A DNA stretch of 64,000 nucleotides from Melioribacteraceae bacterium (GTDB lineage Bacteria > Bacteroidota > Ignavibacteria > Ignavibacteriales > Melioribacteraceae). This document shows, piece by piece, positions 24,511 to 41,140 of this stretch. A program made the position numbers and the translations under genes. The notes under the pieces are model-generated. The model ran no database searches, was not told the origin of the DNA, and was given only the letters and a program-made list of their open reading frames with translations. The first letter of the stretch is position 1; every line of letters begins with the position of its first letter. The stretch is taken from positions 62,001-126,000 of the forward strand of contig JAIPBD010000011.1 in assembly GCA_021739765.1 (NCBI GenBank), given 5' to 3'.

Positions 24511-25710
24511 CTATTTCTTTAATGTGATCAAGAAAACCGAACCCCGGCCAATTGCAGAGTCTTGCAGAATAATTTTGCCTTTGTGGTAATCTTCAACTAT
24601 TCTTTTGGCGAGGCTAAGACCTAAACCCCAACCCCGTTTTTTTGTAGAGTATCCCGGTCGGAAAATGTCTTTTCTATTTCTGAAGTCTAATCCTTTACCG
24701 TTATCTTTAACATAGATGTTTACCTGATCAGCTTTTTCTTCCAAAATCAATTCAATCTTGCCTTCATTACTTTCGATGGCGTCAAGAGCATTTTTAATCA
24801 GATTTTCCAACACCCATTCGAATAACTCTTTATTTAATTGAATATTTGTTTTTGGAACAGATTGATAAACTAATTCGACGTTTTTTCTTGCTTGGGGAAT
24901 TCTTCTTTTAAAATAGTTAATTACATTTTCGAATAATTCGTTTAGGTCGGTTTCGACCAGTTTGGGCGTAGAACCTATTTTTGAAAATCGTTGCGCGATC
25001 TTTTCGAGACGACTTAAATCATTCCCCATTTCTTCGGTCGCATCCAGAACCTTATCCGGACTTTTGAAATTCATACGCAGGATTTCAGTCCATCCCAGCA
25101 AACTCGAGATTGGGGTTCCAAGCTGATGAGCGGTTTCTTTGGCCATTCCAACCCAGATGTTGCTTTGTTCGGTTTTTTTTATGTAACTAAAGCTTACATA
25201 ACCGATAATTATAAATAGAAAAGCAATTATAATTTGAACAAAAGGATAATACTTTAAACTGTTGATTAAATCCGAATCCCCATAATGAATTTTGGATAGT
25301 ACAATTCCTCCGTACTCAACGGCAATTGGTGTATAAATGCGATCAAATGATTCGATCTTATCGGCGAAAAATTGCATTAATTCCTCATCGGTTTTAGTTG
25401 AATCATAGGCGAGGTTGCTTACTTCAAATCCGTCGAGGGATTTATTGACTACGTTCTCCGCATTCGTAAGGATGATCGGGAAATCAATTCGTTTTATAAT
25501 ATTTTCAAATAGGAAGGTGAAATCAGAACTTTCGGAAGCAGTGCTGATTATATATTCGTAGCTTTTTGCGTAAAGTTCAACAAACTTTTTTTGTCGTTCT
25601 TGTAAGTCTTTCACTATGCTTTGGGTGTAATACAATGTTCCGAAAGCAATTATCAGCGCCAAAAACAATAGCAGAATTTTAATATTACCTGAGTTCGGTT
25701 TCCCGGACAT
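24511..25710 (-). CDS. Orphan sensor histidine kinase
   Basis: A 399-residue inner-membrane histidine kinase. Two transmembrane segments (about 11-29 and 155-176) bracket an extracytoplasmic sensor of about 125 residues. The H-box is AKETAHQLGTP near 190-200, with the phospho-acceptor His. The HATPase domain shows ENLIKNALDA (N-box), DNGKGLDF and GWGLGLSLAKR (G-boxes). No response regulator lies next to it, so its partner is elsewhere. It follows purA by 66 bp. An imperfect hairpin in that gap could mask its AGGGG ribosome-binding site. Confidence 0.92.
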   Translation of the reverse strand: MSGKPNSGNIKILLLFLALIIAFGTLYYTQSIVKDLQERQKKFVELYAKSYEYIISTASESSDFTFLFENIIKRIDFPIILTNAENVVNKSLDGFEVSNLAYDSTKTDEELMQFFADKIESFDRIYTPIAVEYGGIVLSKIHYGDSDLINSLKYYPFVQIIIAFLFIIIGYVSFSYIKKTEQSNIWVGMAKETAHQLGTPISSLLGWTEILRMNFKSPDKVLDATEEMGNDLSRLEKIAQRFSKIGSTPKLVETDLNELFENVINYFKRRIPQARKNVELVYQSVPKTNIQLNKELFEWVLENLIKNALDAIESNEGKIELILEEKADQVNIYVKDNGKGLDFRNRKDIFRPGYSTKKRGWGLGLSLAKRIVEDYHKGKIILQDSAIGRGSVFLITLKK

Positions 25711-25715
25711 ATTTT

Positions 25716-25764
25716 CCCCTTAGTAATTTCTTCAAGTAATTCTAAAATTAAGAAAACTAAAGGG
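25716..25764 (-). promoter_or_regulatory. Imperfect hairpin overlapping the histidine kinase ribosome-binding site
   Basis: On the transcript, CCCTTT..AGT..TTTCTT pairs with AAGAAA..ACT..AAGGG through three helices of about 5, 3 and 6 bp separated by bulges. The 3' arm includes AGGGG (25720-25716), 5 bases before the kinase ATG. No T-tract follows, so it is not a terminator; ribosome-site masking is possible. Confidence 0.35.
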
Positions 25765-25776
25765 AAAGGAATATCT

Positions 25777-27129
<1,353 letters not shown>

Positions 27130-27135
27130 TTAATT

Positions 27136-27474
27136 CTATTTAAAGCTTTCAACAGCCTTTTCAACCGATTCGTAATGTTCAAAAATCGTGATAAGTTTAG
27201 TTATCATCAAAAGACTGTTAATTTTATCGGTAGCATTTGCGAGTTTAAAAAATCCCTCACCATTTTTCATCGTTGTAAATCCACTAATTAGCATTCCTAA
27301 TCCGGAACTATTCATGAATTTTACTCCGGCAAGGTCAACAACAACATTTTTTTTACCTTCATCGAGAAGTTTATGGAGCAATGTGTTGAATTCTTGCGCA
27401 TCCGGGCCGCCCATAACATTTCCTTTAAGTTCAATAACAGCAGCGCCATACTTTTCATTTACTTTAATTTTCAT
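27136..27474 (-). CDS. STAS-domain anti-sigma factor antagonist
   Basis: A 112-residue single STAS domain, as in SpoIIAA/RsbV. The FMNSSGLGML segment (about 53-62) holds the Ser that is phosphorylated by RsbW-type kinases. The unphosphorylated form normally binds such a kinase and frees its target. It is divergent from the ECF sigma gene at 27671 and is a second, separately transcribed antagonist alongside the STAS gene at 31622. It therefore probably feeds into the same partner-switching network. Its own terminator follows. Confidence 0.92.
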   Translation of the reverse strand: MKIKVNEKYGAAVIELKGNVMGGPDAQEFNTLLHKLLDEGKKNVVVDLAGVKFMNSSGLGMLISGFTTMKNGEGFFKLANATDKINSLLMITKLITIFEHYESVEKAVESFK

Positions 27475-27640: not shown

Positions 27641-27665
27641 GGAACAAATCACGAATTTTAGCGTC
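27641..27665 (+). promoter_or_regulatory. Predicted ECF-type autopromoter of the sigma factor gene
   Basis: GGAAC (27641-27645) and CGTC (27662-27665) are separated by 16 bases, the pattern typical of ECF sigma-dependent promoters. The ATG of the sigma gene is at 27671, only 5 bases after CGTC, so the transcript would start at or next to the start codon and be leaderless. No ribosome-binding site is seen, which agrees. Confidence 0.6.
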
Positions 27666-27670
27666 TAAAA

Positions 27671-28258
27671 ATGAGTAATTCTGAAAGATCAGATTCGATT
27701 AATGAACAACCGGTAGATGAAGATTTTGAGCTGATTAATAATTTTATCAGCGGCGATGAATCAGCGTTTAGTGAGCTTGTGCACAAGCATAAAGAAAAAG
27801 TTAGAAATTTAGTGTTTCTGACTCTGGGCGACACAGAGTATGTGGATGATATTTCCCAGGATGTCTTTATTAGTGTTTATCACAAATTGGGGGATTTTCG
27901 ATTTCAATCAAAATTCACAACTTGGCTTTACAGAGTAACCGTAAACAAGTGTAAAGACTATTTGAGGAAAAAGAAAGTCAGAAGCATATTTGTCCCTATT
28001 AAAGATAACGAACACGAATTAAGAGTCGGTTCCGGTACCGACAATATGGATATTCCCCAGCTTGTAAGACGAGCGATTGAGAAGCTGCCGGACAAGTTGA
28101 AAGTTCCGCTTATATTAAGAGATATTGATGGTTTCAGTTATAAAGAAATTGCTGAGCAGTTGGAATGTGAAGTCGGCACAGTAAAATCAAGGATTTTCCG
28201 TGCAAGGGAAAACCTAAAATTTATTTTGGAGCCATATCAGAAAGAGTTAAACTCGTGA
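27671..28258 (+). CDS. ECF-family RNA polymerase sigma factor
   Basis: A 195-residue group 4 sigma factor of the RpoE-like type. Region 2 (about 25-95) includes DDISQDVFISVYHKL and FTTWLYRVTVNKCKDYLR. Region 4 (about 135-185) includes the LPDKLKVPLILRDIDGFSYKEIAEQL helix-turn-helix and VGTVKSRIFRARENL. It lacks regions 1 and 3, as expected. It is followed after 6 bp by a membrane-anchored protein in the position where anti-sigma factors are usually found, and then by a partner-switching cluster. A matching ECF-type promoter lies immediately upstream, so autoregulation is likely. Confidence 0.95.
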   Translation: MSNSERSDSINEQPVDEDFELINNFISGDESAFSELVHKHKEKVRNLVFLTLGDTEYVDDISQDVFISVYHKLGDFRFQSKFTTWLYRVTVNKCKDYLRKKKVRSIFVPIKDNEHELRVGSGTDNMDIPQLVRRAIEKLPDKLKVPLILRDIDGFSYKEIAEQLECEVGTVKSRIFRARENLKFILEPYQKELNS

Positions 28259-28264
28259 TTACTT

Positions 28265-29506
28265 ATGAAAAAATTTGTTCAAAAATATGGTTTTTCGGTT
28301 GGATTAGTTCTTCTAACCATTTCTCTGATATTTGTATTTAAAGAAAAAGGCAACATTGTTGAAAGCAGCACTGATTCGTTTTTAGATTTCTACACTCAAA
28401 ACCTCAAGCCGTTAATTTTCGAAACTGATCTCACAAATGAAGATGTTTTCAATTTTGCTTTCTACCGAAATTTACCCGTAAACGAACAACGCGATCGAAT
28501 ACTTACAGTTTCGGAAGATTATTCTGATAATGACATTATTGAGATAAAATCAGCCCAGCTGCTTGATAATACTAAAAACTACGACAGATTTGTAACCTCT
28601 TTAGAATTATCATCCGCTGAAAAGGAAAGACTTGATTCCATTTTGTCATCGTATAAATCGGAAATTAACACCTTTGTTTTTGTCAGTGATAATAACACAA
28701 TCGCTGTTGATCCTAAAATTGGACTATTGAGCCAGCTCGTTTTAAATGATGTAATGCAATTTGCGAACAACGTTTCATCTAATGAAAATAAAACGAAAAC
28801 CCAATGGTCAACCGGCAAAGGTGCCGAAACGAATGCGCTGAATCTAATAAGAAAGTCTGTAAAATCTTCTGACCAAAAGGAATTAGTATTTATCGCGTCC
28901 GATACATCATTTAGTACTTCATGTGAAATTGACGATCTTGAGATTAAGGAATCGATCGCCAAAGCTAAGGGTAAATCAGAATGGAACGGTGGATCGGTAA
29001 CATTAAAGAATTATTTCAAAAAACCGGCAAAACCGTTCACCCCCACGATTCAAAATTTGAATGGAATCCAAGTCACTCAAGACAGTAAAACATCTTCAAG
29101 TCGAATACTGGTTTCCGACAATTTTATGAAAAGTATTCCTGTAGAGGAGATGAATGATTTCAAAAATCACATTGAAGAGATCAAACGGGAATATACAAAC
29201 TTTAGTTTTTCGGTCGGTTCAACCGATGAATCCGGTTCTTTAATATTTCATATGGATACCGGCTCGGATGATGAGCCTCAAATAAAATTTGAAATTAATG
29301 TTAAACAAATAGGCGATCTTGTTTCAGAATCGGTTGGAAAAGGCTTTGATGGGAATTTCCGGAATTGGAAAGAATTTGGATTGCAAATCGATTCATTATC
29401 TCAAAATATGAAATTGTTTGAAACCGATTCATCTATAAGGATAGAAGTTAAACCTAGTTCCTCTTCTGCAAGTTCAGCGGCAAAAGCAAAAAAAAGTAAC
29501 AAGTAA
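28265..29506 (+). CDS. Membrane-anchored protein of unknown function next to ECF sigma
   Basis: I do not recognise this 413-residue protein. It has one transmembrane segment near the N-terminus (about 9-25) with a short basic cytosolic tail, so the bulk should lie outside the cytoplasm. The region about 115-160 is helical and polar, about 240-350 is mixed, and the tail is Ser/Ala/Lys-rich low complexity. It has none of the HxxxCxxC zinc motif of ZAS anti-sigma factors, and only about 8 residues precede the membrane. It could still be a sensor or co-regulator of the sigma factor, since the two are 6 bp apart. That role is inference. Confidence 0.6.
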   Translation: MKKFVQKYGFSVGLVLLTISLIFVFKEKGNIVESSTDSFLDFYTQNLKPLIFETDLTNEDVFNFAFYRNLPVNEQRDRILTVSEDYSDNDIIEIKSAQLLDNTKNYDRFVTSLELSSAEKERLDSILSSYKSEINTFVFVSDNNTIAVDPKIGLLSQLVLNDVMQFANNVSSNENKTKTQWSTGKGAETNALNLIRKSVKSSDQKELVFIASDTSFSTSCEIDDLEIKESIAKAKGKSEWNGGSVTLKNYFKKPAKPFTPTIQNLNGIQVTQDSKTSSSRILVSDNFMKSIPVEEMNDFKNHIEEIKREYTNFSFSVGSTDESGSLIFHMDTGSDDEPQIKFEINVKQIGDLVSESVGKGFDGNFRNWKEFGLQIDSLSQNMKLFETDSSIRIEVKPSSSSASSAAKAKKSNK

Positions 29507-29549
29507 ACTTAATTTCAATAATTTTATAAGATAGGGTGGAACAAAACTG

Positions 29550-31622
29550 ATGTCACTTCCTTCAAGCGATTTATTGAACTCCCGGAAATTCGAAATCGCA
29601 ACCGCTTTATCTCTGTTACTTTTTCTATTCAGAATAGTTTTTTCGACAGTTAATTCCCCGCTATTGCTCATTCTGAATGAATTGCTGGTCCTTAGCTCAC
29701 TCTATTTTTGGATTCTCTACATCACTAACTTTATTAATGAAAAAGAACACACGCCAATTTCTCTTGTCTTAAATGCGGGCATTTTGAATGCGATTCTTTT
29801 TTTCATAATTGCGATTACGACCGTACTCTTTGATAAATTGCCCGAAGATGAGATAAGTTTTGGTTTTTTCGAAGCTCTCATTCTTTTACTTCTCGGCTTT
29901 ATAACCCTTGGGATAGCAACTTATATAATATCCGGTTTTAGTGAATTGATGAAATTGAAGCAGAAGCGCAATCCTGCCAAATACTTCAATTCGATGATGC
30001 TTTTCTTTCTCTTTTCTGCAATATTGTTTGCGTATAGCCAGTTTGATAACAGTTTGAAATCTGTAGATAACGCAGTTTATGTAGTAGCGATATGCTTAAT
30101 TACATTTAACGCGCTGCGGGTTTCCTGGATTGCGTTTTTAGTTAAAAAGCAGAAACTACAACTTTTAATTATCTCAATCGTCCTTATAATTCTCTTTGGG
30201 TTTAATTTTTCTTTTACGATGGAAAGTGATTTTTTCAATCAAGCGATGATTAATTTTTCACCGGGTATTTATAGGTCGCTGAATTTGATTATGCTTTATG
30301 GTGTAATTTATTTTGTGATTATATTTTTTACTGCGTTATTTCATCTGCCTACTGCTGAAGCGTTTGATAAAAAATCTGAAGAAATATCATCCCTTTTTGA
30401 TTTGAGCAAGTTGTTAACTTCGGTATTCGACTTCAAGGATCTGGCCGAGAATATAACATCGATTACCACTAAGGTTTATAATTCAGATTCAGCGTGGTTA
30501 TTAACGCGCGAAGGGGATGAGTATAAATTAAGTTCCGTTAGCGGAATTGGTTACATGCAGGCAGAAAAAATCACAGAATCTGTCTTGGAAAAATACGATT
30601 ACAATTTATCCGAAGTTTTAATTATTGATAAGAAGAAAATAAAATTTCGGGTACGGAATGATATTGTTTCGTTTAATTTTGATTCGATGGCAATCGCGCC
30701 TTTAAAAGTTCATAATCAGATTGAAGGATTTTTGTTCGTCGCGAGAAAATCGGATTCGCGTTTTGAAAGCGAGGATAAAAAAGCAATTGCGGCCTATGCC
30801 GATTACGCAGCCATTGCACTTGAAAATGCCAAACTGATAAAAGAATCGTTAGAGAAAGAACGGCTCGAAAAAGAGATGGAAGTTGCCCGGGAAATCCAAT
30901 ACAAATTGCTTCCCAACAAAATTCCCAGCTTTAAAGATCTTGAAATTTCAGCTGTGTTTATCCCGGCATTTGAAGTTGGCGGTGATTATTATGATTTTTT
31001 TGAAGTGGGGGAGAAAAATCTCGCATTCGTTGTTGCTGATGTTTCCGGCAAGGGAATTTCCGCGGCGTTCATAATGGCTGAAATTAAAGGAATATTTGAG
31101 TCATTGTCTAAAACAATATCCCAACCAAAAGTATTATTGAATTATGCGAACGACATAATAAATCAGAGCCTTGAGAAAAAATATTTTGTTACGGCCATTT
31201 ACGGAATAATTGATATGCAAAACGGCAAACTTACCTTTGGCCGTGCAGGGCATACACCGCTTCATCTTTTCAGGGATAACTCGGTTAAAAGACTTCGTCC
31301 GAATGGTATCGGGCTCGGACTTGATCATGGTAATAAGTTTGCATCTACATTAGAGGAGATGGAAATTCAGTTAAATAATAACGATATTTTAATTCTATAT
31401 TCTGATGGCATAACTGAGGCACAAAACGGAATAAACGAAGAGTTTGGGTACGATAAATTAGATACGATTGTGACTGAAAATTGGCGGAAAAATGCTTCAG
31501 AAATTTCTAATGAAATTATCAAAAACGTAACAACATTTTCAAAAGATAAAGCCCAGCATGATGATATCACGCTGGTAGTTTTTAAATCAAATTTTAATAA
31601 CAAACAGATTGAGGTAGGTTAA
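29550..31622 (+). CDS. Membrane-bound GAF-SpoIIE (PP2C) serine phosphatase
   Basis: A 690-residue phosphatase that would dephosphorylate STAS antagonists. About eight transmembrane helices occupy residues 10-260. A GAF domain follows (about 279-430), then a charged coiled linker (KERLEKEMEVAREIQYKLLP) and the SpoIIE-type PP2C domain (about 464-690). Metal-binding and catalytic motifs are GGDYYDFF, VADVSGKG, RAGHTPL, YSDGITEAQ and HDDITLVVF. The stop overlaps the STAS gene start in TAATG, a strong sign that the STAS protein is its substrate. First of three PP2C genes in this cluster. Confidence 0.92.
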   Translation: MSLPSSDLLNSRKFEIATALSLLLFLFRIVFSTVNSPLLLILNELLVLSSLYFWILYITNFINEKEHTPISLVLNAGILNAILFFIIAITTVLFDKLPEDEISFGFFEALILLLLGFITLGIATYIISGFSELMKLKQKRNPAKYFNSMMLFFLFSAILFAYSQFDNSLKSVDNAVYVVAICLITFNALRVSWIAFLVKKQKLQLLIISIVLIILFGFNFSFTMESDFFNQAMINFSPGIYRSLNLIMLYGVIYFVIIFFTALFHLPTAEAFDKKSEEISSLFDLSKLLTSVFDFKDLAENITSITTKVYNSDSAWLLTREGDEYKLSSVSGIGYMQAEKITESVLEKYDYNLSEVLIIDKKKIKFRVRNDIVSFNFDSMAIAPLKVHNQIEGFLFVARKSDSRFESEDKKAIAAYADYAAIALENAKLIKESLEKERLEKEMEVAREIQYKLLPNKIPSFKDLEISAVFIPAFEVGGDYYDFFEVGEKNLAFVVADVSGKGISAAFIMAEIKGIFESLSKTISQPKVLLNYANDIINQSLEKKYFVTAIYGIIDMQNGKLTFGRAGHTPLHLFRDNSVKRLRPNGIGLGLDHGNKFASTLEEMEIQLNNNDILILYSDGITEAQNGINEEFGYDKLDTIVTENWRKNASEISNEIIKNVTTFSKDKAQHDDITLVVFKSNFNNKQIEVG

Positions 31623-31975
31623 TGGCAGATTTCAACGTCAATACTCGAGAAGTTGGATCTGTAAGAGTCATCGAGCTGAAAGGGTACTTGGATGCTCATA
31701 CCGCTCCTGAACTTGAGAATACTTTCAACAGCCTGATTAACGATGCTAACTTTAAAGTTGTTGTTAATTTTAATTCCCTGAAATATATCAGTAGTGCGGG
31801 ATTAGGCGTATTTATGGCTTACGTTGAAACTATGAGGGAAAACTCCGGTGATATTAAATTCACCAATATGAATAAGGATGTTTATAATATTTTTGACCTC
31901 CTTGGTTTCCCTATGCTATATGAATTCTTCGAAGATGAAGATTTGGCTATTCAAAAGTTTAATAATTCTTTATAA
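31622..31975 (+). CDS. STAS-domain anti-sigma factor antagonist (RsbV-like)
   Basis: A 117-residue STAS domain protein. YISSAGLGVFM (about 57-67) contains the Ser expected to be phosphorylated by the kinase encoded next. In the RsbV/RsbW scheme the dephosphorylated antagonist binds the kinase and releases its target. It overlaps the phosphatase gene upstream by one base, with a good GAGGTAGG site, and precedes the kinase gene closely. This gives the classic order phosphatase, antagonist, kinase. Confidence 0.95.
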   Translation: MADFNVNTREVGSVRVIELKGYLDAHTAPELENTFNSLINDANFKVVVNFNSLKYISSAGLGVFMAYVETMRENSGDIKFTNMNKDVYNIFDLLGFPMLYEFFEDEDLAIQKFNNSL

Positions 31976-31998
31976 TCTTGCAGAATCCGAACCATACT

Positions 31999-32412
31999 AT
32001 GAACAAAGAATTAGTTATAAAAAGTACGACCGACAACTTGGCACGAGTTCGTGATTTTATAACTTCAACCGCGAAAGATGTTGGATTTAATAATGAAACT
32101 GTTGGTGAAATGGTATTGGCTGTGGATGAAGCTTGTACAAACGTAATTAAACATGCTTATAAATACTCACCGGATAGAACAATTACCGTAAATATCGAAT
32201 TCGTGGATGGAAAATTTAGAATATCCATCACCGATAATGGAATACATTTTAATCCCAGTACAGTTCCCGATCCAGACATTAAAGTATATCATAAAGAAAA
32301 ACGAACAGGTGGATTAGGTATGTTTCTAATGAAAAAGTTAATGGACGAAGTTAGTTATAACACTCTTAATGAAGACCGCAACCAAGTAATATTAGTTAAA
32401 TATCTTAATTAA
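31999..32412 (+). CDS. RsbW-like anti-sigma serine kinase
   Basis: A 137-residue GHKL ATPase of the RsbW/SpoIIAB family, which phosphorylates STAS antagonists and sequesters a target such as a sigma factor. DEACTNVIKHAY is the N-box, DNG the G1 box and GGLGMFLMKKL the G2 box. A TTG 21 bases upstream is possible, but ATG 31999 gives the family-typical N-terminus NKELVIKSTTDNL. No SigB-type sigma factor is encoded in the window, so the target may be the nearby ECF factor, a sigma factor elsewhere or a non-sigma output. Confidence 0.93.
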   Translation: MNKELVIKSTTDNLARVRDFITSTAKDVGFNNETVGEMVLAVDEACTNVIKHAYKYSPDRTITVNIEFVDGKFRISITDNGIHFNPSTVPDPDIKVYHKEKRTGGLGMFLMKKLMDEVSYNTLNEDRNQVILVKYLN

Positions 32413-32416
32413 TTTT

Positions 32417-34099
32417 ATGCTCGCTAAAGATAATTCCACAGCAATAGGGAATCTTTCGGCACTCGTAGATTTTAGCAATCTTATAAATTCCAGTCTTGAT
32501 CTCGAATTTGCGTTAAATAATATTCTGCTTACATGTTTTGGAAAATTTCATACAACTAAAGGTCTTATAGCGCTCACAGATAATTCCGGTTATGTATCCG
32601 CATCCGCATCGAAAGGCATATCTAAAGAAGTCATTGATTCATTCCCAAAATTAAACGAAGATAATCTCAAAAATGAATCCGTTGAATTAAATGAATTCAT
32701 GAGTAAAAATAATCTTGAGATTAAAAGAATAATTGAAACTTCTTCCGGAATTCTGGGAATAATTATTCTCGGAAAAAGATTTACAAAACAACCATACTCG
32801 GATGAAGATTTAGATTTCCTCAAAACGATCACCAACATAGGTTCGACGGCAATCGAAAACTCCCTCGCTGTTGATAAACTGAGGAAGGTCAATCGTGATT
32901 TGGATGCAAAAGTGAATCAACTAAGCTCGTTGTTTGATTTAAGCAAAGAATTCAGTGGAATCTTATCGAAGGAAAGAATCACAAAACTTTTAACATATTC
33001 TATCATTGGCCAACTTTTAGTTACCAAATACGCCATAATCTATTGTGACGATCATAATTACGATATTTTAGAATCAAAATTTGATGAAGAGAAGTTGACA
33101 AGTTTGTTCCAAAAGAACAATTGTGCTACAATCAGCGAACCGTTATTTGGAGATAATTTAAATAATAATTATTCCGGTTTAACCGAAACCGGAGTTGAGA
33201 TCGTCGTTCCGATGTTGATAAAAGGCAAGACTAAGGGGCTGATTCTTGTAGGCAGAAGAAGAAATTTACAACCATTTACAAAATCCGATATAGAATTTGT
33301 TTCCTCGGTTGGGGGCTTGGCAATAATCTCGATCGAAAACGCCAGCTTGTTCGAAGAGACACTTGAAAAGCAAAGACTGGAGAAGGATCTCGAAATCGCG
33401 AGAAATATTCAGAGAAATTTGTTGCCGGATAAGATTCCGAATCTCAATTACGCAGAAATTGCGGCATATAATCAATCTGCTCGACAAGTTGGGGGTGATT
33501 ACTACGATGTAATAAAATTAGATGATAAAAGAACCGTCGTTGCGATTGCAGATGTTTCGGGGAAAGGTGTTCAAGCGGCATTGCTAATGGCTAATCTTCA
33601 AGCTTTTTTACGGGCAATTAGTAAACAGAACATTGACATTAGTGAAGCGTCAAATCTTATAAACGATTTGGTGTCGGAAAATACTATGGGCGGTAGTTTT
33701 ATTACATTTTTTTGGGGCATTTTAGATGAAGATAAAAAATCATTTAAATATGTAAATGCCGGACATAACCCACCTTTGCATATCAGCCAAGGCAAAATGG
33801 CGAAATTGAAAACCGGTGGAATGATTTTCGGCGTAATGGAAACATTAATTCCGTACAAATCTGAGACTGTTAGTCTATCATCCGGAGATTCTATAATACT
33901 GTTTACAGATGGAATTACGGAAGCCATGGATGTTACAAAAACTGAGTATAGTGATGAAAGATTGGAAGAATTGGTTTTAACTAAATGTAAGAATTCTGCC
34001 CAAGAAATAATTAATTCTGTTGTTGATGACGTAAAACTTCACACCAAAGGTGCTAATCAGTCTGATGATATCACATCATTAGTCATCAAAATTAAGTGA
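32417..34099 (+). CDS. Cytosolic tandem-GAF SpoIIE (PP2C) phosphatase
   Basis: A 560-residue soluble phosphatase with two GAF-type regions (about 10-150 and 171-314), a coiled linker (RLEKDLEIARNIQRNLLP) and a SpoIIE/PP2C domain (about 341-560). Catalytic motifs GGDYYDVI, IADVSGKG, NAGHNPPL, FTDGITEAM and SDDITSLVI are intact. Unlike its two neighbours it has no transmembrane segment, so it should respond to a cytosolic signal. It begins 4 bp after the kinase gene and is clearly related to the 29550 and 34104 phosphatases, which suggests local duplication with replacement of the sensory part. Confidence 0.92.
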   Translation: MLAKDNSTAIGNLSALVDFSNLINSSLDLEFALNNILLTCFGKFHTTKGLIALTDNSGYVSASASKGISKEVIDSFPKLNEDNLKNESVELNEFMSKNNLEIKRIIETSSGILGIIILGKRFTKQPYSDEDLDFLKTITNIGSTAIENSLAVDKLRKVNRDLDAKVNQLSSLFDLSKEFSGILSKERITKLLTYSIIGQLLVTKYAIIYCDDHNYDILESKFDEEKLTSLFQKNNCATISEPLFGDNLNNNYSGLTETGVEIVVPMLIKGKTKGLILVGRRRNLQPFTKSDIEFVSSVGGLAIISIENASLFEETLEKQRLEKDLEIARNIQRNLLPDKIPNLNYAEIAAYNQSARQVGGDYYDVIKLDDKRTVVAIADVSGKGVQAALLMANLQAFLRAISKQNIDISEASNLINDLVSENTMGGSFITFFWGILDEDKKSFKYVNAGHNPPLHISQGKMAKLKTGGMIFGVMETLIPYKSETVSLSSGDSIILFTDGITEAMDVTKTEYSDERLEELVLTKCKNSAQEIINSVVDDVKLHTKGANQSDDITSLVIKIK

Positions 34100-34103
34100 T
34101 AAA

Positions 34104-36665
34104 ATGGAACGCTTTGCCATTCTTGCAAGGAATAGGATAAGAATAATTAAAATATTGACGACGTTCCTAATCTTTCAAGGACTTGTTAATTTTTACTTTC
34201 TATTTGAGATTAATCCGTCCCCAAATGATGAATGTATTTGGTTCCCTATATCCGTCAATTCGGATAGTACCGTTTATGAATTTCGTGATGTAAAGTTTGA
34301 AGGAGCCGCATGGAACGCGGGAATCCGGGATGGTGATCACCTTATTAAGATAAACGGGATTCAGACCACAGATCCTTTTACAGCTAACAATTCGATGTTA
34401 ACAAGATCAGAAGGGAATGTTGCCACTTATTTAGTTTCCCGAGATGGCAACAGATTTGAGACTAAAGTTGAATTTAAAAGACTCATAAATTTTAATGCTC
34501 TTGCGGTAAATTTAGTTTCAATCTTTTGGCTGATGATGGGTTATGTAGTAATTGTCTCTAAACCGGAGGGGAAATCTCAAAGGCTGTTCTACAAAATTGG
34601 CGTCTCAGGAATGCTATTCTCTCTCATCTGTGTGCAAGTGATAAATGGTTCGGCAAACCCGATTTATTTCTATCCCGTAATCACTGTTTTAATTGATTTA
34701 TTGCAAGCCGTTGGGATGGTTTGGACTCCCTTCCTAATTATTAACTTCTTTTTACATTTTCCGAGAGAAGTAGGAATAATTCATAAAAAAATATTTAAGA
34801 AAATCTTTTTCTTTACGCCGATTGCTCTTTACGTCTTATTGTTGATTTACAAGGTTCTATTTCTATACAATGAGACGCTTGCGAGGGGAATCGCAAGCAT
34901 TAATTTTCAATTTTCGGTATTCGGAATTCTTTTCGTGATTTCAGTCTTGCTATCTTCGATATTTCTAATTCGTGGATATCTAAAAATTGAATCTAAAAGA
35001 GAGAGAAGTTCAGTATTTGTAATTATTATTGCTTCAATTATTGCAATAGTTTCCGTTATATATACAGCTACCTTGGCACCCGCAATAGCGACAAATATTT
35101 ATAATGATCCACAATATTTTGCGCCGATATTTTTGATAGTGTTGATTCCGATATCGTTCGGTTATTCCATATTCAGATACTCTTTAATGGATGTTTCGGA
35201 TGTTGTTAAGAATACAATTTTGTATGGATTAGCGACAATCGCAATCGCGGCAGTATATTTTTTAACGATTTATATATTAGGACAATGGATAAGCCAAGCA
35301 CTGACCGAACAATATCAAGCAATACTTGCTGGGATGATTTTTATAATTTTTGCGGTAATATTCCAATCATCAAAAGATCGAATTCAAGAGCTAATTACAC
35401 GCAAGTTTTATCCCGAGCAATTTGCGTTTCAAAATGTATTGGTGAAATTCAGCAAAGACATTAACACAATTGTCGGTCTCGAAAATATTTTGGACTCAGC
35501 CAACACAACTTTTGTGGATTCACTCAATCTGCAAAATTTTGGAATAATTTTGAGATGTGAAGAATCCGGGCATTATAAATTTATGCGGACTTTTAACATC
35601 GAACATTCTGAAAAAGATATTTTTGTTAATGACTCAGCCGTGCTTGAATTAATGAAGAACAAGGAGAAACAACAATTACCCCAGGTGCTTGATAAGTCAG
35701 AATTTGCCGCTGTTGTTTCTGAAGGGGAAATCGAAATTAATCTCGAACAGATTTATACCATTCTTCCACTGATAAACAAAGATAATGTTTTGGGATTTCT
35801 CTTTTTTAGTCTAAAAAGATCTGGTGCGCAATTTGCTGGGAAGGACTTAGAACTTTTATCCGCCTCCGCAAATCAACTTTCCGCTTCAATTGAAAACGCC
35901 CGTCTGTATGAATCCGAAGCCGAAAAAATGCAAATGGAGCGTGACCTTGATAACGCGAGAGCGATACAAAGTCATTTACTTCCAAAAGCGATTCCGAGTC
36001 TGAGAGGATTAAATATGGCCGGAATAATGACACCCGCGAACCATGTTGGCGGTGATTATTATGACTTTATAACAACGGAAAAGGGAAATGTTTTCATCAT
36101 TGTTGGTGATGTTTCGGGTAAAGGTTTGTCGGCCTCATTTTATATGTCAAAATTACAAACAATTGCAAAACTCTACTGTAAAGAAGGTAAATCGCCCAGG
36201 GAAATAATTATTGAAATGAATAAACAAATTTTTGGGCAAATTGATCGTAGTTGGTTTATTACAGTTTCATTAGCCTATTTTGATACCAAAAATAAAAAGA
36301 TGAGTTTAGTTAGAGCCGGACACACACCAACTTATTTTATTACAGGCAATAAAATCCAAGAATTAAAACCGGATGGAATTGGAGTCGGACTTGAAAAGGG
36401 AGTGGTTTTTGAAAAGGCATTAACACAACTTGATATTGATTATTCTGCCGAAAACTGGTTCGTTTTTTACTCTGATGGAATTACGGAAGCTCAAGATTCT
36501 GATAAGAATTTTTACGGTGAAGTGAGATTTAAAAAATTACTTCTCGAAAATAAGGATTTGGAAACTTCTGAATTGATGGAAAGGGTTAATGAGGATCTTA
36601 AAGCATTCCGCGGTTCAGCCAACCAGAATGATGATATCACACTTGTTCTCGCAAAATCTTATTAG
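34104..36665 (+). CDS. PDZ-containing membrane GAF-SpoIIE (PP2C) phosphatase
   Basis: An 853-residue phosphatase. Transmembrane helix 1 (about 14-33) is followed by a PDZ-like domain (about 57-125, with GAAWNAGIRDGDHLIKING), placed outside the cytoplasm. A block of about eight further helices reaches residue 430, then a GAF-like domain (about 445-610), a coiled linker and a PP2C domain (about 632-853). Motifs GGDYYDFI, VGDVSGKG, RAGHTPTYF, YSDGITEAQ and NDDITLVLA are intact. PDZ domains bind peptide C-termini or membrane-protein tails, so an envelope signal is plausible. Third phosphatase in the cluster. Confidence 0.9.
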   Translation: MERFAILARNRIRIIKILTTFLIFQGLVNFYFLFEINPSPNDECIWFPISVNSDSTVYEFRDVKFEGAAWNAGIRDGDHLIKINGIQTTDPFTANNSMLTRSEGNVATYLVSRDGNRFETKVEFKRLINFNALAVNLVSIFWLMMGYVVIVSKPEGKSQRLFYKIGVSGMLFSLICVQVINGSANPIYFYPVITVLIDLLQAVGMVWTPFLIINFFLHFPREVGIIHKKIFKKIFFFTPIALYVLLLIYKVLFLYNETLARGIASINFQFSVFGILFVISVLLSSIFLIRGYLKIESKRERSSVFVIIIASIIAIVSVIYTATLAPAIATNIYNDPQYFAPIFLIVLIPISFGYSIFRYSLMDVSDVVKNTILYGLATIAIAAVYFLTIYILGQWISQALTEQYQAILAGMIFIIFAVIFQSSKDRIQELITRKFYPEQFAFQNVLVKFSKDINTIVGLENILDSANTTFVDSLNLQNFGIILRCEESGHYKFMRTFNIEHSEKDIFVNDSAVLELMKNKEKQQLPQVLDKSEFAAVVSEGEIEINLEQIYTILPLINKDNVLGFLFFSLKRSGAQFAGKDLELLSASANQLSASIENARLYESEAEKMQMERDLDNARAIQSHLLPKAIPSLRGLNMAGIMTPANHVGGDYYDFITTEKGNVFIIVGDVSGKGLSASFYMSKLQTIAKLYCKEGKSPREIIIEMNKQIFGQIDRSWFITVSLAYFDTKNKKMSLVRAGHTPTYFITGNKIQELKPDGIGVGLEKGVVFEKALTQLDIDYSAENWFVFYSDGITEAQDSDKNFYGEVRFKKLLLENKDLETSELMERVNEDLKAFRGSANQNDDITLVLAKSY

Positions 36666-38090: not shown

Positions 38091-39230
38091 TTAGAATTCC
38101 AACTTTTTCTTGGATTTTTTTACATATTCTAAAACGAAAGGACTTGCCACGAAAACTGATGAGTAAGTCCCAACAATAATTCCCAAGAATAATGTAAACG
38201 CGAAACCTCTTAAAACTTCACCACCCGCAAAAAGTAATACGGTAACAACGAATAACGTTGTGGCGGAAGTAATAATCGTACGAGGCATCGTCTTATTTAT
38301 GGCACTATTGATATTATCTTCTAATTTTGCAGTTTTATGAATCTTTAAATTCTCTCTTACGCGGTCAAAAACAACCACTGTATCGTTGATTGAGTAACCG
38401 ACCAGTGTCAAAAATGAGGACACAACGTAAATAGATATTTCGAGATTCAATCCTGGAATCAAACCATAAAACAAGGAAAATACACCTAAAGTAATTAGAA
38501 CGTCATGAAACAACGCTGCAACGGCGCCAACCGCAAAAACAAATTTAAACCGGAAACCGAGATAAACAAGTATTCCGATCAAAGCAAGAACTACGGCGAT
38601 GATTGCATCAGTTTTTAATTCGTTACCAATTTTTGGACCAACGCGACTTGATTTTTGAACAACAAATGGATTATCTGAGTATTCTTCCTTCAAATTTTCT
38701 TCAATCCAATCGGCAATTCCAATTCTAACGATTAATTGTGTGTTCTCCGGCTCTTCCGAAACTTTTGAAGTTTGCAATCCTTCTTCAAATAGACGATCGG
38801 AAAGATCATTTGCAATTTCGGCGGATTGAAAATCGTAAGTAACATAATTTATTGCCGAATCAACAATAATCAGATCAATATCCGGATAATACTTGTTGAT
38901 TTCTCTTCCTGTTGCCGCGACAACTTGGCTATAAACATTCGCAGGTATTTCTTGAAGTTCGGTTCTAACTAATATCCCTTCATCACCACCAAAAGTTTTT
39001 ACCTCAACATTTCCAAGTCCAAGAGTATTTATTTTATCTCTTGCCGCAGAAATATCAATAGGTTTTTCAAATTTAAGTGCTACTTCGGTACCACCTTTAA
39101 AGTCAATTCCTAACTCTAATCCTCTAACAGCCAAACTGATTATTCCTGCAAGAATTAATACGCCCGAAATAATATAGGCGGTTTTTCTCTTGCTGAGGAA
39201 ATCAATATTAAGTTTTTCGAATATACGCAT
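38091..39230 (-). CDS. secF: Protein translocase subunit SecF
   Basis: SecF forms a complex with SecD and pulls exported proteins through SecYEG using the proton-motive force. The 379-residue protein has helix 1 (about 17-35), the GIDFKGG motif at about 42-48 and a periplasmic P4 domain. Five further helices follow from about residue 205, with DTVVVFDR near 288. Its length is larger than E. coli SecF because of an extended periplasmic part. It is 20 bp downstream of secD. Confidence 0.95.
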   Translation of the reverse strand: MRIFEKLNIDFLSKRKTAYIISGVLILAGIISLAVRGLELGIDFKGGTEVALKFEKPIDISAARDKINTLGLGNVEVKTFGGDEGILVRTELQEIPANVYSQVVAATGREINKYYPDIDLIIVDSAINYVTYDFQSAEIANDLSDRLFEEGLQTSKVSEEPENTQLIVRIGIADWIEENLKEEYSDNPFVVQKSSRVGPKIGNELKTDAIIAVVLALIGILVYLGFRFKFVFAVGAVAALFHDVLITLGVFSLFYGLIPGLNLEISIYVVSSFLTLVGYSINDTVVVFDRVRENLKIHKTAKLEDNINSAINKTMPRTIITSATTLFVVTVLLFAGGEVLRGFAFTLFLGIIVGTYSSVFVASPFVLEYVKKSKKKLEF

Positions 39231-39250
39231 TTAATGAAAGCTCCTCTTTA

Positions 39251-41140
39251 TTAACCAACATCAATTTTGGCACCTTTTGATGCCATAAAATCAAAAACTA
39301 ATCGTGTTACTACAAGTGCCGCAAAAAGACTGGATGCGATACCAATCATCAATGTGAGCGCGAATCCTTGAACGGGACCGCTACCAAATTGATAAAGGAT
39401 AATACCTGTAAAAAACGTTGTAATATTCGAGTCAAAAATGGCCGAATATGAATTTGAATATCCGCCTTCAATAGACGCTCGAACAGTTTTACCGGTTGCA
39501 AGTTCTTCTCTAATTCTTTCAAATATCAGAACATTTGCGTCCACTGCCATACCGATGGTAAGAATTATACCGGCGATACCGGGCAATGTTAATGTCGCTT
39601 GAAAACCGGCCAGGATTCCCATTATAAAAACGATTGTAAAGAATAAAGCCAAGTCTGCAACCATTCCCGATTTTTTATAATACCAAACCATAAATAATGC
39701 GACAACAATAAAACCGATGAAAATTGAATTGAAACCTTGGTTAATAGAATCTTGTCCAAGTGATGGTCCAACAGTCCTTTCATCAATAATATCAATAGGT
39801 GCAGGAAGTGCACCGGCTTTTAATACAATTTCAATTAGTTTGGCCTCTTCCATATTGTCCAAACCTTCAATTTGTGATCTTCCACCAACAATTTTACCGT
39901 TAATGTTTGGTGCCATGTAAACAAAATTGTCGAGAACAATTGCCAAACGTTTATTGATGTTCGATCCCGTAATTCTAGCCCATTCTAATGAGCCTTCAGA
40001 ATTCATTTGCATTGAGACAATCGGTGAAGTGGTGCTTGGATCAATATTCGCCTGTGCGTCCTCTATTACACCACCGGTTAATTCAGCTTGTTTATTAACA
40101 AGATAAAGTTTGTAGAACTCGACAGCTTCCTGCGTTGTGACGGGCTTCGCTGAAAATTTGAATTCAACGTTGTCTGGAATAATTCTTTGCACTTCTTCAA
40201 GTTGAAGATAATTGTAAAGTTTATCCCTATCGTCAGCTTTTACGTATGCATCAGCAACAGGGCTTTGAGGAATCACTTGCGCAATTGAGTAAAATGGATG
40301 TTTTTTCCTAAATTCTTCCTCACTCAAATCTGCTTCCGATAATGAATCAGTTTCAACCGAAGTTGTATCTTCACCATATAAAGCTTTTGCGAGAACTTCA
40401 TCCACTCGATTCATAATCGGTACAGTGAAATCAGGTTCTTTAACCAATTTGAATTCGAGCAGAGCTCGTCCTTGAATTAATCTTTTAGCCTCTTCTTCTC
40501 GGGCAATACCCGGAAGTTCGACTATGATTCTCCTGGCACCTTGTTTTTGGATACTCGGTTCCGAGACACCATATTGATCAACCCGGTTTCGTATAATTTC
40601 TATTGCGCGCGTAACCGCATCTGATTCTTGCTCTTCCAAATTTTCGATAATATCTTCATCGCTCTCTCGAATAGAACCGAAGTATCGGCTAAGGCGAATT
40701 CCTTCTTGTTGAAGTTTATTTGCCAAAAGTGTTACAACATTTTCATCCGAATCTCTCGATTCAATCTCAGCTTCTTTTAGAAGTTTATTATAAACTTCAT
40801 CAGGATCGTTTGCCAACCTTTCCAAAAGCTTTGCCGTATTAACTTCCATCACAAGATACATACCACCTTGAAGGTCCAAACCAAGCTTAACACGTTTTTC
40901 TCTTGCGTCTTTGTATGTTTCGTTCGATAGTCTTAAACTATCAGCTTTAACTTCGAGTAAAAGTTCCAGGTCCTCATCAGAAATGGTGGGTGACTGAACT
41001 TTAATATTCTCTTTAATTACAGCTAACTCTTCTTCAATTTCGCTATTGTTTTGGATATCTTGGTAAGTAGGATAGAGAAGGAATAAACTGAACAGAAAGA
41101 GTGCTGTAATTAGAACAATTCTAAATCTAAATTCTTTCAT
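39251..41140 (-). CDS. secD: Protein translocase subunit SecD
   Basis: SecD is the larger partner of SecF. The 629 residues show an N-terminal helix (about 6-24), the KLGLDLQGG motif at about 85-93, a long periplasmic region with IRNRVDQYGVSEP (P1 fold) and TGSNINK, and six C-terminal helices with GMAVDANVLIFERIREE. The linker about 30-80 is rich in charged residues and longer than in E. coli. A well-formed promoter lies about 54 bp upstream, so secD-secF is its own operon. Confidence 0.96.
   Translation of the reverse strand: MKEFRFRIVLITALFLFSLFLLYPTYQDIQNNSEIEEELAVIKENIKVQSPTISDEDLELLLEVKADSLRLSNETYKDAREKRVKLGLDLQGGMYLVMEVNTAKLLERLANDPDEVYNKLLKEAEIESRDSDENVVTLLANKLQQEGIRLSRYFGSIRESDEDIIENLEEQESDAVTRAIEIIRNRVDQYGVSEPSIQKQGARRIIVELPGIAREEEAKRLIQGRALLEFKLVKEPDFTVPIMNRVDEVLAKALYGEDTTSVETDSLSEADLSEEEFRKKHPFYSIAQVIPQSPVADAYVKADDRDKLYNYLQLEEVQRIIPDNVEFKFSAKPVTTQEAVEFYKLYLVNKQAELTGGVIEDAQANIDPSTTSPIVSMQMNSEGSLEWARITGSNINKRLAIVLDNFVYMAPNINGKIVGGRSQIEGLDNMEEAKLIEIVLKAGALPAPIDIIDERTVGPSLGQDSINQGFNSIFIGFIVVALFMVWYYKKSGMVADLALFFTIVFIMGILAGFQATLTLPGIAGIILTIGMAVDANVLIFERIREELATGKTVRASIEGGYSNSYSAIFDSNITTFFTGIILYQFGSGPVQGFALTLMIGIASSLFAALVVTRLVFDFMASKGAKIDVG

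What the first reader, a model, noticed from the sequence alone, without database searches (positions are those of the whole stretch)
27641..36665. ECF sigma factor beside a partner-switching module with three phosphatases
The plus-strand order is ECF sigma, unknown membrane protein, PP2C phosphatase, STAS antagonist, RsbW-like kinase, PP2C phosphatase, PP2C phosphatase, with a second STAS gene divergent. All catalytic motifs look intact. Each phosphatase has a different input: about eight helices plus GAF; two cytosolic GAFs; and a PDZ-like domain plus about eight helices plus GAF. So three signals (membrane, cytosolic, envelope) could converge on one or two STAS proteins. No SigB-type factor is present. 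Partner-switching kinases are known to act on SigB/SigF-type factors or other outputs; whether this one touches the ECF factor is open.
Basis: partly seen in the sequence, partly recalled or inferred. Interest (0 to 1): 0.72.

Follow-up and report, generated by a model that had tools for sequence, protein, structure and literature searches.

The report
Sigma factor that lost its anti-sigma
In one group of environmental bacteria, an envelope-stress type gene switch has lost the protein part that normally keeps it off and now sits in one operon with a kinase-phosphatase relay, which is a plausible but untested replacement.

Summary
The genes are as described. The finding's start, 27641, is an ECF-type promoter (GGAAC-N16-CGTC) ahead of the sigma gene. 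By its nearest named relatives the window is from Melioribacteraceae (Ignavibacteriales).

The "unknown membrane protein" is the stump of this ECF factor's transmembrane anti-sigma factor. In outgroup families of the class, the ECF factor has a normal partner (anti-sigma domain, membrane helix, periplasmic domain). The PP2C-STAS-kinase-PP2C operon lies elsewhere, with no orthologue of this sigma gene beside it. In Ignavibacteriales the two loci merged, and a third phosphatase appears. In the window's clade the anti-sigma domain was lost once: found in 0 of 32 fetched ECF neighbourhoods, against 38 of 38 in the sister family and 20 of 20 outgroup loci. Some members lost the membrane protein too.

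After that loss, sigma gene and module stay together (57 of 57 decidable genomes). In the sister family they part in 5 of 37. The factor is not decaying, and its old anti-sigma contact region has become variable.

My working model: the RsbW-like kinase took over restraint of the ECF factor. Binding is unshown, and the kinase carries no clade-specific signature. The history is well supported; the hand-over is a hypothesis (about 0.42).

The parts
27641..27665 (+). ECF-type promoter GGAAC-N16-CGTC, 5 bases before the ECF start codon
   Evidence: only exact match in the window; same motif upstream of the orthologue in f1 18/27, f2 5/5, f3 36/38 and 17/20 outgroup loci (18/20 outgroup with a wider stretch)
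27136..27474 (-). STAS2, divergent anti-sigma-antagonist-like protein
   Evidence: Pfam STAS 46 bits, TIGR00377 61 bits; beside purA and divergent from ECF in most relatives
27671..28258 (+). ECF sigma factor (sigma2 + sigma4, no region 3)
   Evidence: Pfam r2 54 and r4_2 67 bits; orthologue in 38 of 38 relatives searched at 52-79% identity
28265..29506 (+). truncated transmembrane anti-sigma factor: membrane helix and periplasmic domain kept, cytoplasmic anti-sigma domain missing
   Evidence: homologous to sister-family and outgroup proteins (411-644 aa) that begin with a zf-HC2/RseA_N-like domain
29550..31622 (+). PP2C-A: about 8 membrane helices, GAF, SpoIIE-type phosphatase
   Evidence: SpoIIE 149 bits, GAF_3 29.5 bits; hydropathy
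31622..31975 (+). STAS1, candidate antagonist with Ser-Ser-Ala-Gly motif
   Evidence: STAS 53.5 bits; motif S[SA]AGLG in 28/28 f1, 5/5 f2, 37/38 f3, 8/8 outgroup
31978..32412 (+). RsbW/SpoIIAB-like serine kinase
   Evidence: HATPase_c_2 109 bits; nearest solved structures RsbW 6m36 and SpoIIAB 1til
32417..34099 (+). PP2C-B: cytosolic GAF + SpoIIE-type phosphatase
   Evidence: SpoIIE 160 bits, GAF_3 32.5 bits
34104..36665 (+). PP2C-C: helix, PDZ-like segment, about 9 helices, GAF, SpoIIE-type phosphatase; a third phosphatase at this place was seen only within the order
   Evidence: SpoIIE 127 bits, PDZ_6 21 bits below cut-off; third PP2C in 40/46 f1+f2, 32/33 f3, 0/17 decidable outgroup modules

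Best explanation
The locus is a merger of two signalling systems. (1) Shown by comparison: an ECF sigma factor with its own ECF-type promoter and a transmembrane anti-sigma factor, and a class-wide PP2C-STAS-kinase-PP2C module, were separate and became one operon in Ignavibacteriales. (2) Shown by comparison: the anti-sigma domain was then lost once, on the stem of the window's clade, leaving a membrane-plus-periplasmic stump. (3) Inferred: the module, most likely the RsbW-like kinase, took over restraint of the ECF factor. At rest the kinase holds the ECF factor and phosphorylates STAS1. A membrane, cytosolic or envelope signal activates a PP2C phosphatase, dephosphorylated STAS1 takes the kinase, and the freed ECF factor transcribes its own operon from the GGAAC/CGTC promoter. 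(4) Also inferred: the kinase keeps an older second output, because it persists where the ECF factor is absent. The confidence is for the whole chain including step 3; steps 1 and 2 alone I put at about 0.93.
For: Anti-sigma domain: 0 of 32 fetched f1+f2 ECF neighbourhoods, 38 of 38 ECF-bearing f3 genomes, 20 of 20 outgroup ECF loci; one change on the tree; the f3 versus f1+f2 split also appears in PurA alone, support 0.997. Not moved elsewhere: best hits in f1/f2 genomes 43 bits or less, against 90-109 in f3. ECF and kinase together in 57 of 57 decidable f1+f2 genomes against 32 of 37 in f3 (Fisher 0.008, or 0.02-0.06 under stricter counts, not corrected for relatedness; branch-length argument 0.031). 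The ECF factor is not decaying: rate relative to PurA 1.55 in f1+f2, 1.63 in f3. Promoter kept in 23 of 32 f1+f2 genomes, so an unrestrained factor would be expected to drive itself. Its sigma2.1 region, where anti-sigma helix 4 sits, is the one tested region more variable in the domain-less clade, while the sigma2-sigma4 linker is tighter. No region-3 sigma factor in the genome other than two RpoD-like ones.
Against: No binding data. The kinase has no position fixed differently between the clades and no regional shift in constraint, so nothing in it marks a new ligand. Distance-matrix correlation cannot tell ECF-kinase from any other pair. The kinase is present without an adjacent ECF orthologue in 20 of 20 outgroup loci and persists where the ECF gene is lost (G225) or broken (G281), so it has another output. 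The 16 contact positions chosen beforehand are, as a set, not significantly relaxed (p 0.19), and the five f2 sequences alone do not show the sigma2.1 shift. [quoted passage not shown] In 6 of 8 f1 genomes without any membrane protein the ECF promoter motif is missing too, which fits loss of control as well as hand-over.
Confidence: 0.42

Rival explanations
1. The ECF factor in this clade has no protein inhibitor. Its amount is set by transcription, turnover or weak self-activation, and it serves to boost expression of the module. The kinase acts only on its older, unknown target.
For: Kinase and module are class-wide and persist without the ECF factor. No clade-specific change in the kinase. 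26 of 33 exact GGAAC-N16-CGTCTAA sites in 39 genomes are the ECF operon's own promoter. The promoter motif is missing in 6 of 8 genomes without the membrane protein. A review read in passages says orphan ECFs may rely on transcriptional control alone (PMC8103513).
Against: The promoter motif is kept in 23 of 32 f1+f2 genomes and 13 of 16 further f1 loci, and self-activation without restraint should run away. It gives no reason why sigma and module should stay together only after the domain was lost.
Confidence: 0.36
2. Another anti-sigma factor, encoded elsewhere in the genome, now holds the ECF factor.
For: Most f1/f2 genomes hold other anti-sigma-domain proteins (window genome: three weak hits, 22-27 bits).
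Against: Hits are far weaker than the lost domain (43 bits or less against 90-109) and several lie directly after other ECF genes. The sigma2.1 surface that such domains bind has become variable.
Confidence: 0.12
3. The membrane stump itself still holds the ECF factor at the membrane through its short cytoplasmic tail.
For: The stump is still next to the sigma gene in 24 of 32 fetched f1+f2 genomes and its periplasmic part is conserved.
Against: In the window only about ten residues precede the membrane helix, and the tails vary. 8 of 32 fetched f1+f2 genomes have no recognisable such gene, yet keep the ECF factor.
Confidence: 0.06
4. The shared operon is a co-transcription accident with no functional link between sigma factor and module.
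For: In the sister family the two come apart in 5 of 37 decidable genomes, in both directions.
Against: 57 of 57 linkage in the domain-less clade; gene order kept across highly diverged genera.
Confidence: 0.04

Closest known systems
ECF sigma / class I transmembrane anti-sigma pairs (RpoE-RseA, SigW-RsiW type)
   Same: ECF factor with a GGAAC/CGTC promoter ahead of its gene; sister-family and outgroup members have the adjacent, often overlapping, transmembrane anti-sigma partner
   Different: In the window's clade the anti-sigma domain is missing while helix and periplasmic domain remain
B. subtilis RsbU/RsbP-RsbV-RsbW-SigB partner switching
   Same: PP2C phosphatases, STAS protein and RsbW-like kinase in one operon
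   Different: Only RpoD-like region-3 sigma factors in the genome; the only sigma gene in the operon is an ECF; three phosphatases
Bordetella BtrU/BtrV/BtrW with ECF factor BtrS and anti-sigma BtrA
   Same: An ECF gene and partner-switching genes in one locus (PMC7498569, passages read)
   Different: A different anti-sigma protein, BtrA, is described for BtrS, and none of BtrU, BtrV, BtrW is described as a negative regulator; no truncated anti-sigma gene in the listed locus
Alphaproteobacterial EcfG-NepR-PhyR
   Same: The known case of partner switching on an ECF factor (PMC8103513, passages read)
   Different: Uses a sigma-mimicking response regulator and NepR; no such domain among the locus proteins scanned

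Membership tests
ECF sigma factor | sigma2 and sigma4 without region 3 | tested here: met
   Pfam r2 and r4_2/r4, no region 3 match, 195 aa
ECF / class I anti-sigma pair | adjacent anti-sigma factor with N-terminal anti-sigma domain | tested here: not met
   absent in the window protein and in 32 of 32 fetched f1+f2 neighbourhoods; present in 38 of 38 f3 and 20 of 20 outgroup. The HMM was built from 33 of those f3/outgroup loci, so the other hits are the independent ones
ECF / class I anti-sigma pair | autoregulated promoter ahead of the sigma gene | tested here: inconclusive
   an ECF-type promoter motif is at 27641-27665 and in most relatives; that this factor uses it was not measured
RsbU-RsbV-RsbW partner-switching module | SpoIIE-type PP2C, STAS with serine motif, HATPase_c_2 kinase, together | tested here: met
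RsbU-RsbV-RsbW partner-switching module | kinase reaches the curated RsbW model cut-off | tested here: not met
   NF003144 77.6 bits against 145
RsbU-RsbV-RsbW partner-switching module | SigB/SigF-type target sigma factor | tested here: not met
   two region-3 sigma factors in the genome, both scoring best with RpoD models, under cut-off; no SigB/F/G-subfamily model at E 1e-40; one actinobacterial model named SigB scores 241-250 bits against a cut-off of 464
RsbU-RsbV-RsbW partner-switching module | kinase phosphorylates STAS and binds a sigma factor | not testable with these tools
   needs biochemistry
EcfG-NepR-PhyR | PhyR response regulator or NepR in the locus | tested here: not met
   no response-regulator or NepR domain among the ten proteins scanned against Pfam

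The most novel reading that the evidence does not exclude
[quoted passage not shown] It took over from a classical transmembrane anti-sigma factor whose sigma-binding domain was deleted after the two operons merged, and the living families show the steps: separate, merged with both, domain lost, membrane protein lost.
Probability: 0.4. Interest if true: 0.82.

Novelty: new variant of a known kind. Interest (0 to 1): 0.62.

Why it matters
A published coevolution study notes that only 6% of ECF factors in Bacteroidetes sit beside a class I anti-sigma factor and asks whether other modes of control dominate there. [quoted passage not shown] This locus is a case, placed on a tree, of an ECF factor losing its anti-sigma domain while staying conserved and tied to an RsbW-type module. 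It gives a ready set of natural before-and-after pairs for testing how control of a sigma factor is handed over.

Tried and rejected
Regulon prediction: exact promoter matches outside the operon (7 in 39 genomes) do not exceed the backward-pattern control (18), so no regulon is claimed. Of the eight other sites in the window genome with up to one mismatch, four lie before a reading frame, one does not, and three were not located by my script; not used.

Mirror-tree test of ECF-kinase coevolution: all pairs correlate, uninformative. Search for clade-specific residues in the kinase: none; regional constraint in the kinase: no window below p 0.05; in STAS1 two of seven windows at p 0.028 in opposite directions, not interpreted.

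Anti-sigma contact positions: 15 from PMC7406223 Table 2 plus RpoE R178; as a set not relaxed, p 0.19. The numbering offset between the 1or7 chain and RpoE used there is recalled. The sigma2.1 regional test was framed after seeing per-site results, with six regions compared; treat its p of 0.012 as suggestive.

Direct coupling analysis was not tried: too few sequences. I found no tool here for predicting a complex.

Papers: the ECF re-classification paper is not held. Searches for a described RsbW-type anti-ECF factor, or for this locus in Ignavibacteria, showed none in the listings and passages I saw (searches returned no paper). I opened five papers, by passages; other listed papers were not opened, and the library lacks most subscription journals. 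A Rhodobacter study set up two-hybrid assays of an RsbW-like protein against sigma factors including ECFs (PMC3999984, passages on ECF); I did not read its results section.
Full report
WHAT IS THERE. The eight genes are present as described, in one tight plus-strand run from the ECF gene to PP2C-C with gaps of 43 bases or less, STAS2 diverging. An exact ECF-type promoter, GGAAC-N16-CGTC, begins at 27641 and ends five bases before the ECF start codon. The window genome (G000) is unnamed; the named loci closest to its ECF gene are labelled Melioribacteraceae, Melioribacter, Stygiobacter, Ignavibacteriae, Chlorobiota or Bacteroidetes, and contig lengths tie some of them to the window's own family (for example L092 and G013). 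Below, f1 is the window's family, f2 and f3 are two other families of the same order, 'outgroup' are other families of the class; these are the tool's codes. f2 falls inside f1 on my tree.

CONSERVATION. The ECF orthologue was found in 38 of 38 relatives (52-79% identity over), with listed paralogues at 41% or less, and the kinase in 38 of 38 (in G021 the gene is cut by a contig end). Neighbourhoods fetched were read by ORF and BLAST against the window proteins. The order STAS2, ECF, membrane protein, PP2C-A, STAS1, kinase, PP2C-B, PP2C-C recurs, usually with purA and a histidine kinase beyond STAS2.

THE MEMBRANE PROTEIN IS A TRUNCATED ANTI-SIGMA FACTOR. In f3 the gene after the ECF gene usually overlaps its stop codon, is 489-559 aa long (644 in one genome), and begins with an ~80-residue domain ('LSAYLDGEL...') before the membrane helix. 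Nine such f3 and outgroup proteins scanned against Pfam all hit zf-HC2 at that place (one over the cut-off, 26.4 bits; the others 15-21 bits) and three hit RseA_N below threshold. Outgroup ECF loci have the same kind of partner. A profile of this domain, built from 33 f3 and outgroup loci, is found at 38 of 40 f3 genomes (the other two have no working ECF gene), 20 of 20 outgroup ECF loci, and none of the f1 and f2 loci: 32 fetched neighbourhoods with an ECF gene, 16 more f1 loci and 27 named f1 loci (the named ones overlap with the others). In f1 and f2 the protein starts a few residues before the same membrane helix and keeps the periplasmic motif '(N)LKPL...NEDVFNFA'. Gaps between ECF and membrane gene in f2 (30-272 bases) hold no forward reading frame that looks like the domain (by eye). 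A genome-wide search in 39 genomes scores the domain at 90-109 bits in 11 of 11 f3 genomes and at most 43 bits in any f1 or f2 genome, several of those hits lying beside other ECF genes. It was lost, not moved.

HISTORY. In a class-wide draw the kinase is found in 282 of 392 genomes (E 1e-24) and the ECF orthologue in 159 of 392 (E 1e-38). In 20 of 20 outgroup kinase loci fetched, the kinase follows PP2C-A and STAS1 (PP2C-B follows in 19; the other ends with its contig), and no orthologue of this ECF gene is in the stretch; one locus (L162) has another ECF gene (29% identical) three ORFs downstream of PP2C-B. In 20 of 20 outgroup ECF loci no STAS1, kinase, PP2C-A or PP2C-B is recognised in the stretch (5-20 kb, some cut by contig ends); one (L105) has a SpoIIE-type fragment five ORFs upstream. 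So two separate loci became one in Ignavibacteriales. A third phosphatase follows PP2C-B in 40 of 46 decidable f1+f2 loci and 32 of 33 f3 loci, but 0 of 17 outgroup loci. On a five-protein tree of 79 genomes (G331 and G360 dropped as too gappy) f1+f2 is one clade (0.96), f3 another (1.0), and presence of the anti-sigma domain needs one change, on the f1+f2 stem; three genomes without a fetched ECF gene were left open. PurA alone gives the same split with 0.997. Gene trees of ECF, PP2C-B and STAS1 also give f1+f2 (0.998, 1.0, 0.815); the kinase tree alone does not recover it. Within f1 the membrane gene is not recognisable in 8 of 32 fetched f1+f2 genomes: a deep clade of seven, and G001 on its own.

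NATURAL EXPERIMENTS. In f3, sigma and module can part. G225 and G281, on separate branches, keep STAS2 and the module but have no working ECF gene. In G225 no trace was found at the locus; in G281 the promoter motif and a frameshifted ECF remnant remain; in both the membrane gene is gone too. G331 keeps the ECF pair and no module follows, with no kinase at E 1e-24. In G377 two other genes lie between pair and module; in G395 the pair is followed by other genes and the kinase is on another contig. Three more f3 genomes (G303, G320, G360) are undecidable because of contig ends; in G360 no kinase was found at E 1e-24. G266 counts as linked, its module running across a contig break from PP2C-A. 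That makes 5 of 37. In f1+f2, 32 of 33 fetched genomes have ECF and kinase together (G022 undecidable, contig ends) and 25 of 25 further f1 genomes of the class draw have them on one contig about 3-4.5 kb apart by the coordinates (16 of these later confirmed): 57 of 57. Fisher 0.008; 0.022 if the G377 insertion is not counted; 0.057 with the 32 fetched f1+f2 genomes alone; 0.058 if only the three gene losses count. With equal total branch length in the two clades, five events all falling in f3 has probability 0.031. None of these is corrected for relatedness.

STATE OF THE ECF FACTOR. It evolves no faster relative to PurA in f1+f2 (1.55) than in f3 (1.63). The GGAAC-N15..17-CGTC promoter motif is upstream in 18 of 27 f1, 5 of 5 f2, 36 of 38 f3 and 17 of 20 outgroup loci (18 of 20 with a wider stretch). 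Of 33 exact GGAAC-N16-CGTCTAA sites in 39 genomes, 26 are at this operon. Column entropy in 61 f1+f2 and 38 f3 sequences shows one tested region more variable in the domain-less clade, residues 20-48 (circular-shift p 0.012), which includes the sigma2.1 positions that contact anti-sigma helix 4 in published structures (PMC7406223 Table 2, first part of section 7 read; mapping by the alignment). The sigma2-sigma4 linker, 98-128, is tighter. Comparing f3 subclades or random f3 halves does not give this shift; f2 (5 sequences) does not show it by itself, the deep f1 clade weakly. The contact set alone is not significant (p 0.19).

THE KINASE. It has no column fixed to different residues in the two clades at the thresholds used and no regional change in constraint. 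Either it could already hold the ECF factor before the domain was lost, which would explain why the domain became dispensable, or it does not touch it. The genome has only two region-3 sigma factors, both RpoD-like; f1 genome G020 has one, RpoD-like. So no SigB/SigF-type target was found; the kinase's older output is unknown.

MECHANISM AND VERDICT. Shown by comparison: merger, single loss of the anti-sigma domain, retained and constrained ECF factor, linkage kept afterwards in every decidable genome. Inferred: restraint by the kinase, release by STAS1 after dephosphorylation by one of three phosphatases, positive feedback through the operon's own promoter. Main rival: an ECF factor without protein inhibitor. 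I give the hand-over about 0.42 and the rival 0.36. Literature consulted by passages only (PMC7406223, PMC8103513, PMC7498569, PMC3999984, PMC10733313) shows no RsbW-type anti-ECF factor in what I saw; the Actinoplanes system found (PMC10733313) involves a sigma-B/F/G-type domain.

Noticed in passing
window 27641-27673 and relatives: The first in-frame start codon of the ECF gene lies 4-8 bases after CGTC in 51 of 59 promoter-bearing genomes of the order, so the ECF mRNA is probably leaderless.
   Followed up: partly
[not shown]
   Followed up: partly
L150 and L168: In two outgroup genomes STAS2, secF and secD lie directly beside the module; in the window secF and secD are just downstream (38091-41140). 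STAS2 and secDF may be old neighbours of the module.
   Followed up: no
f1 genomes G017, G019, G047, G275, G337, G349: Loss of the membrane gene goes with loss of the ECF promoter motif (6 of 8 against 3 of 24), all six in one deep clade: control of the ECF gene may have changed again.
   Followed up: partly
G000 contigs C1 and C31: The genome has 14 SpoIIE-type phosphatase matches and further RsbW-like matches, e.g. a kinase at C31:96394 near phosphatases at C31:98134 and 101960.
   Followed up: no
window 24511-27048: A membrane histidine kinase and purA are frequent neighbours of STAS2 across the order.
   Followed up: no
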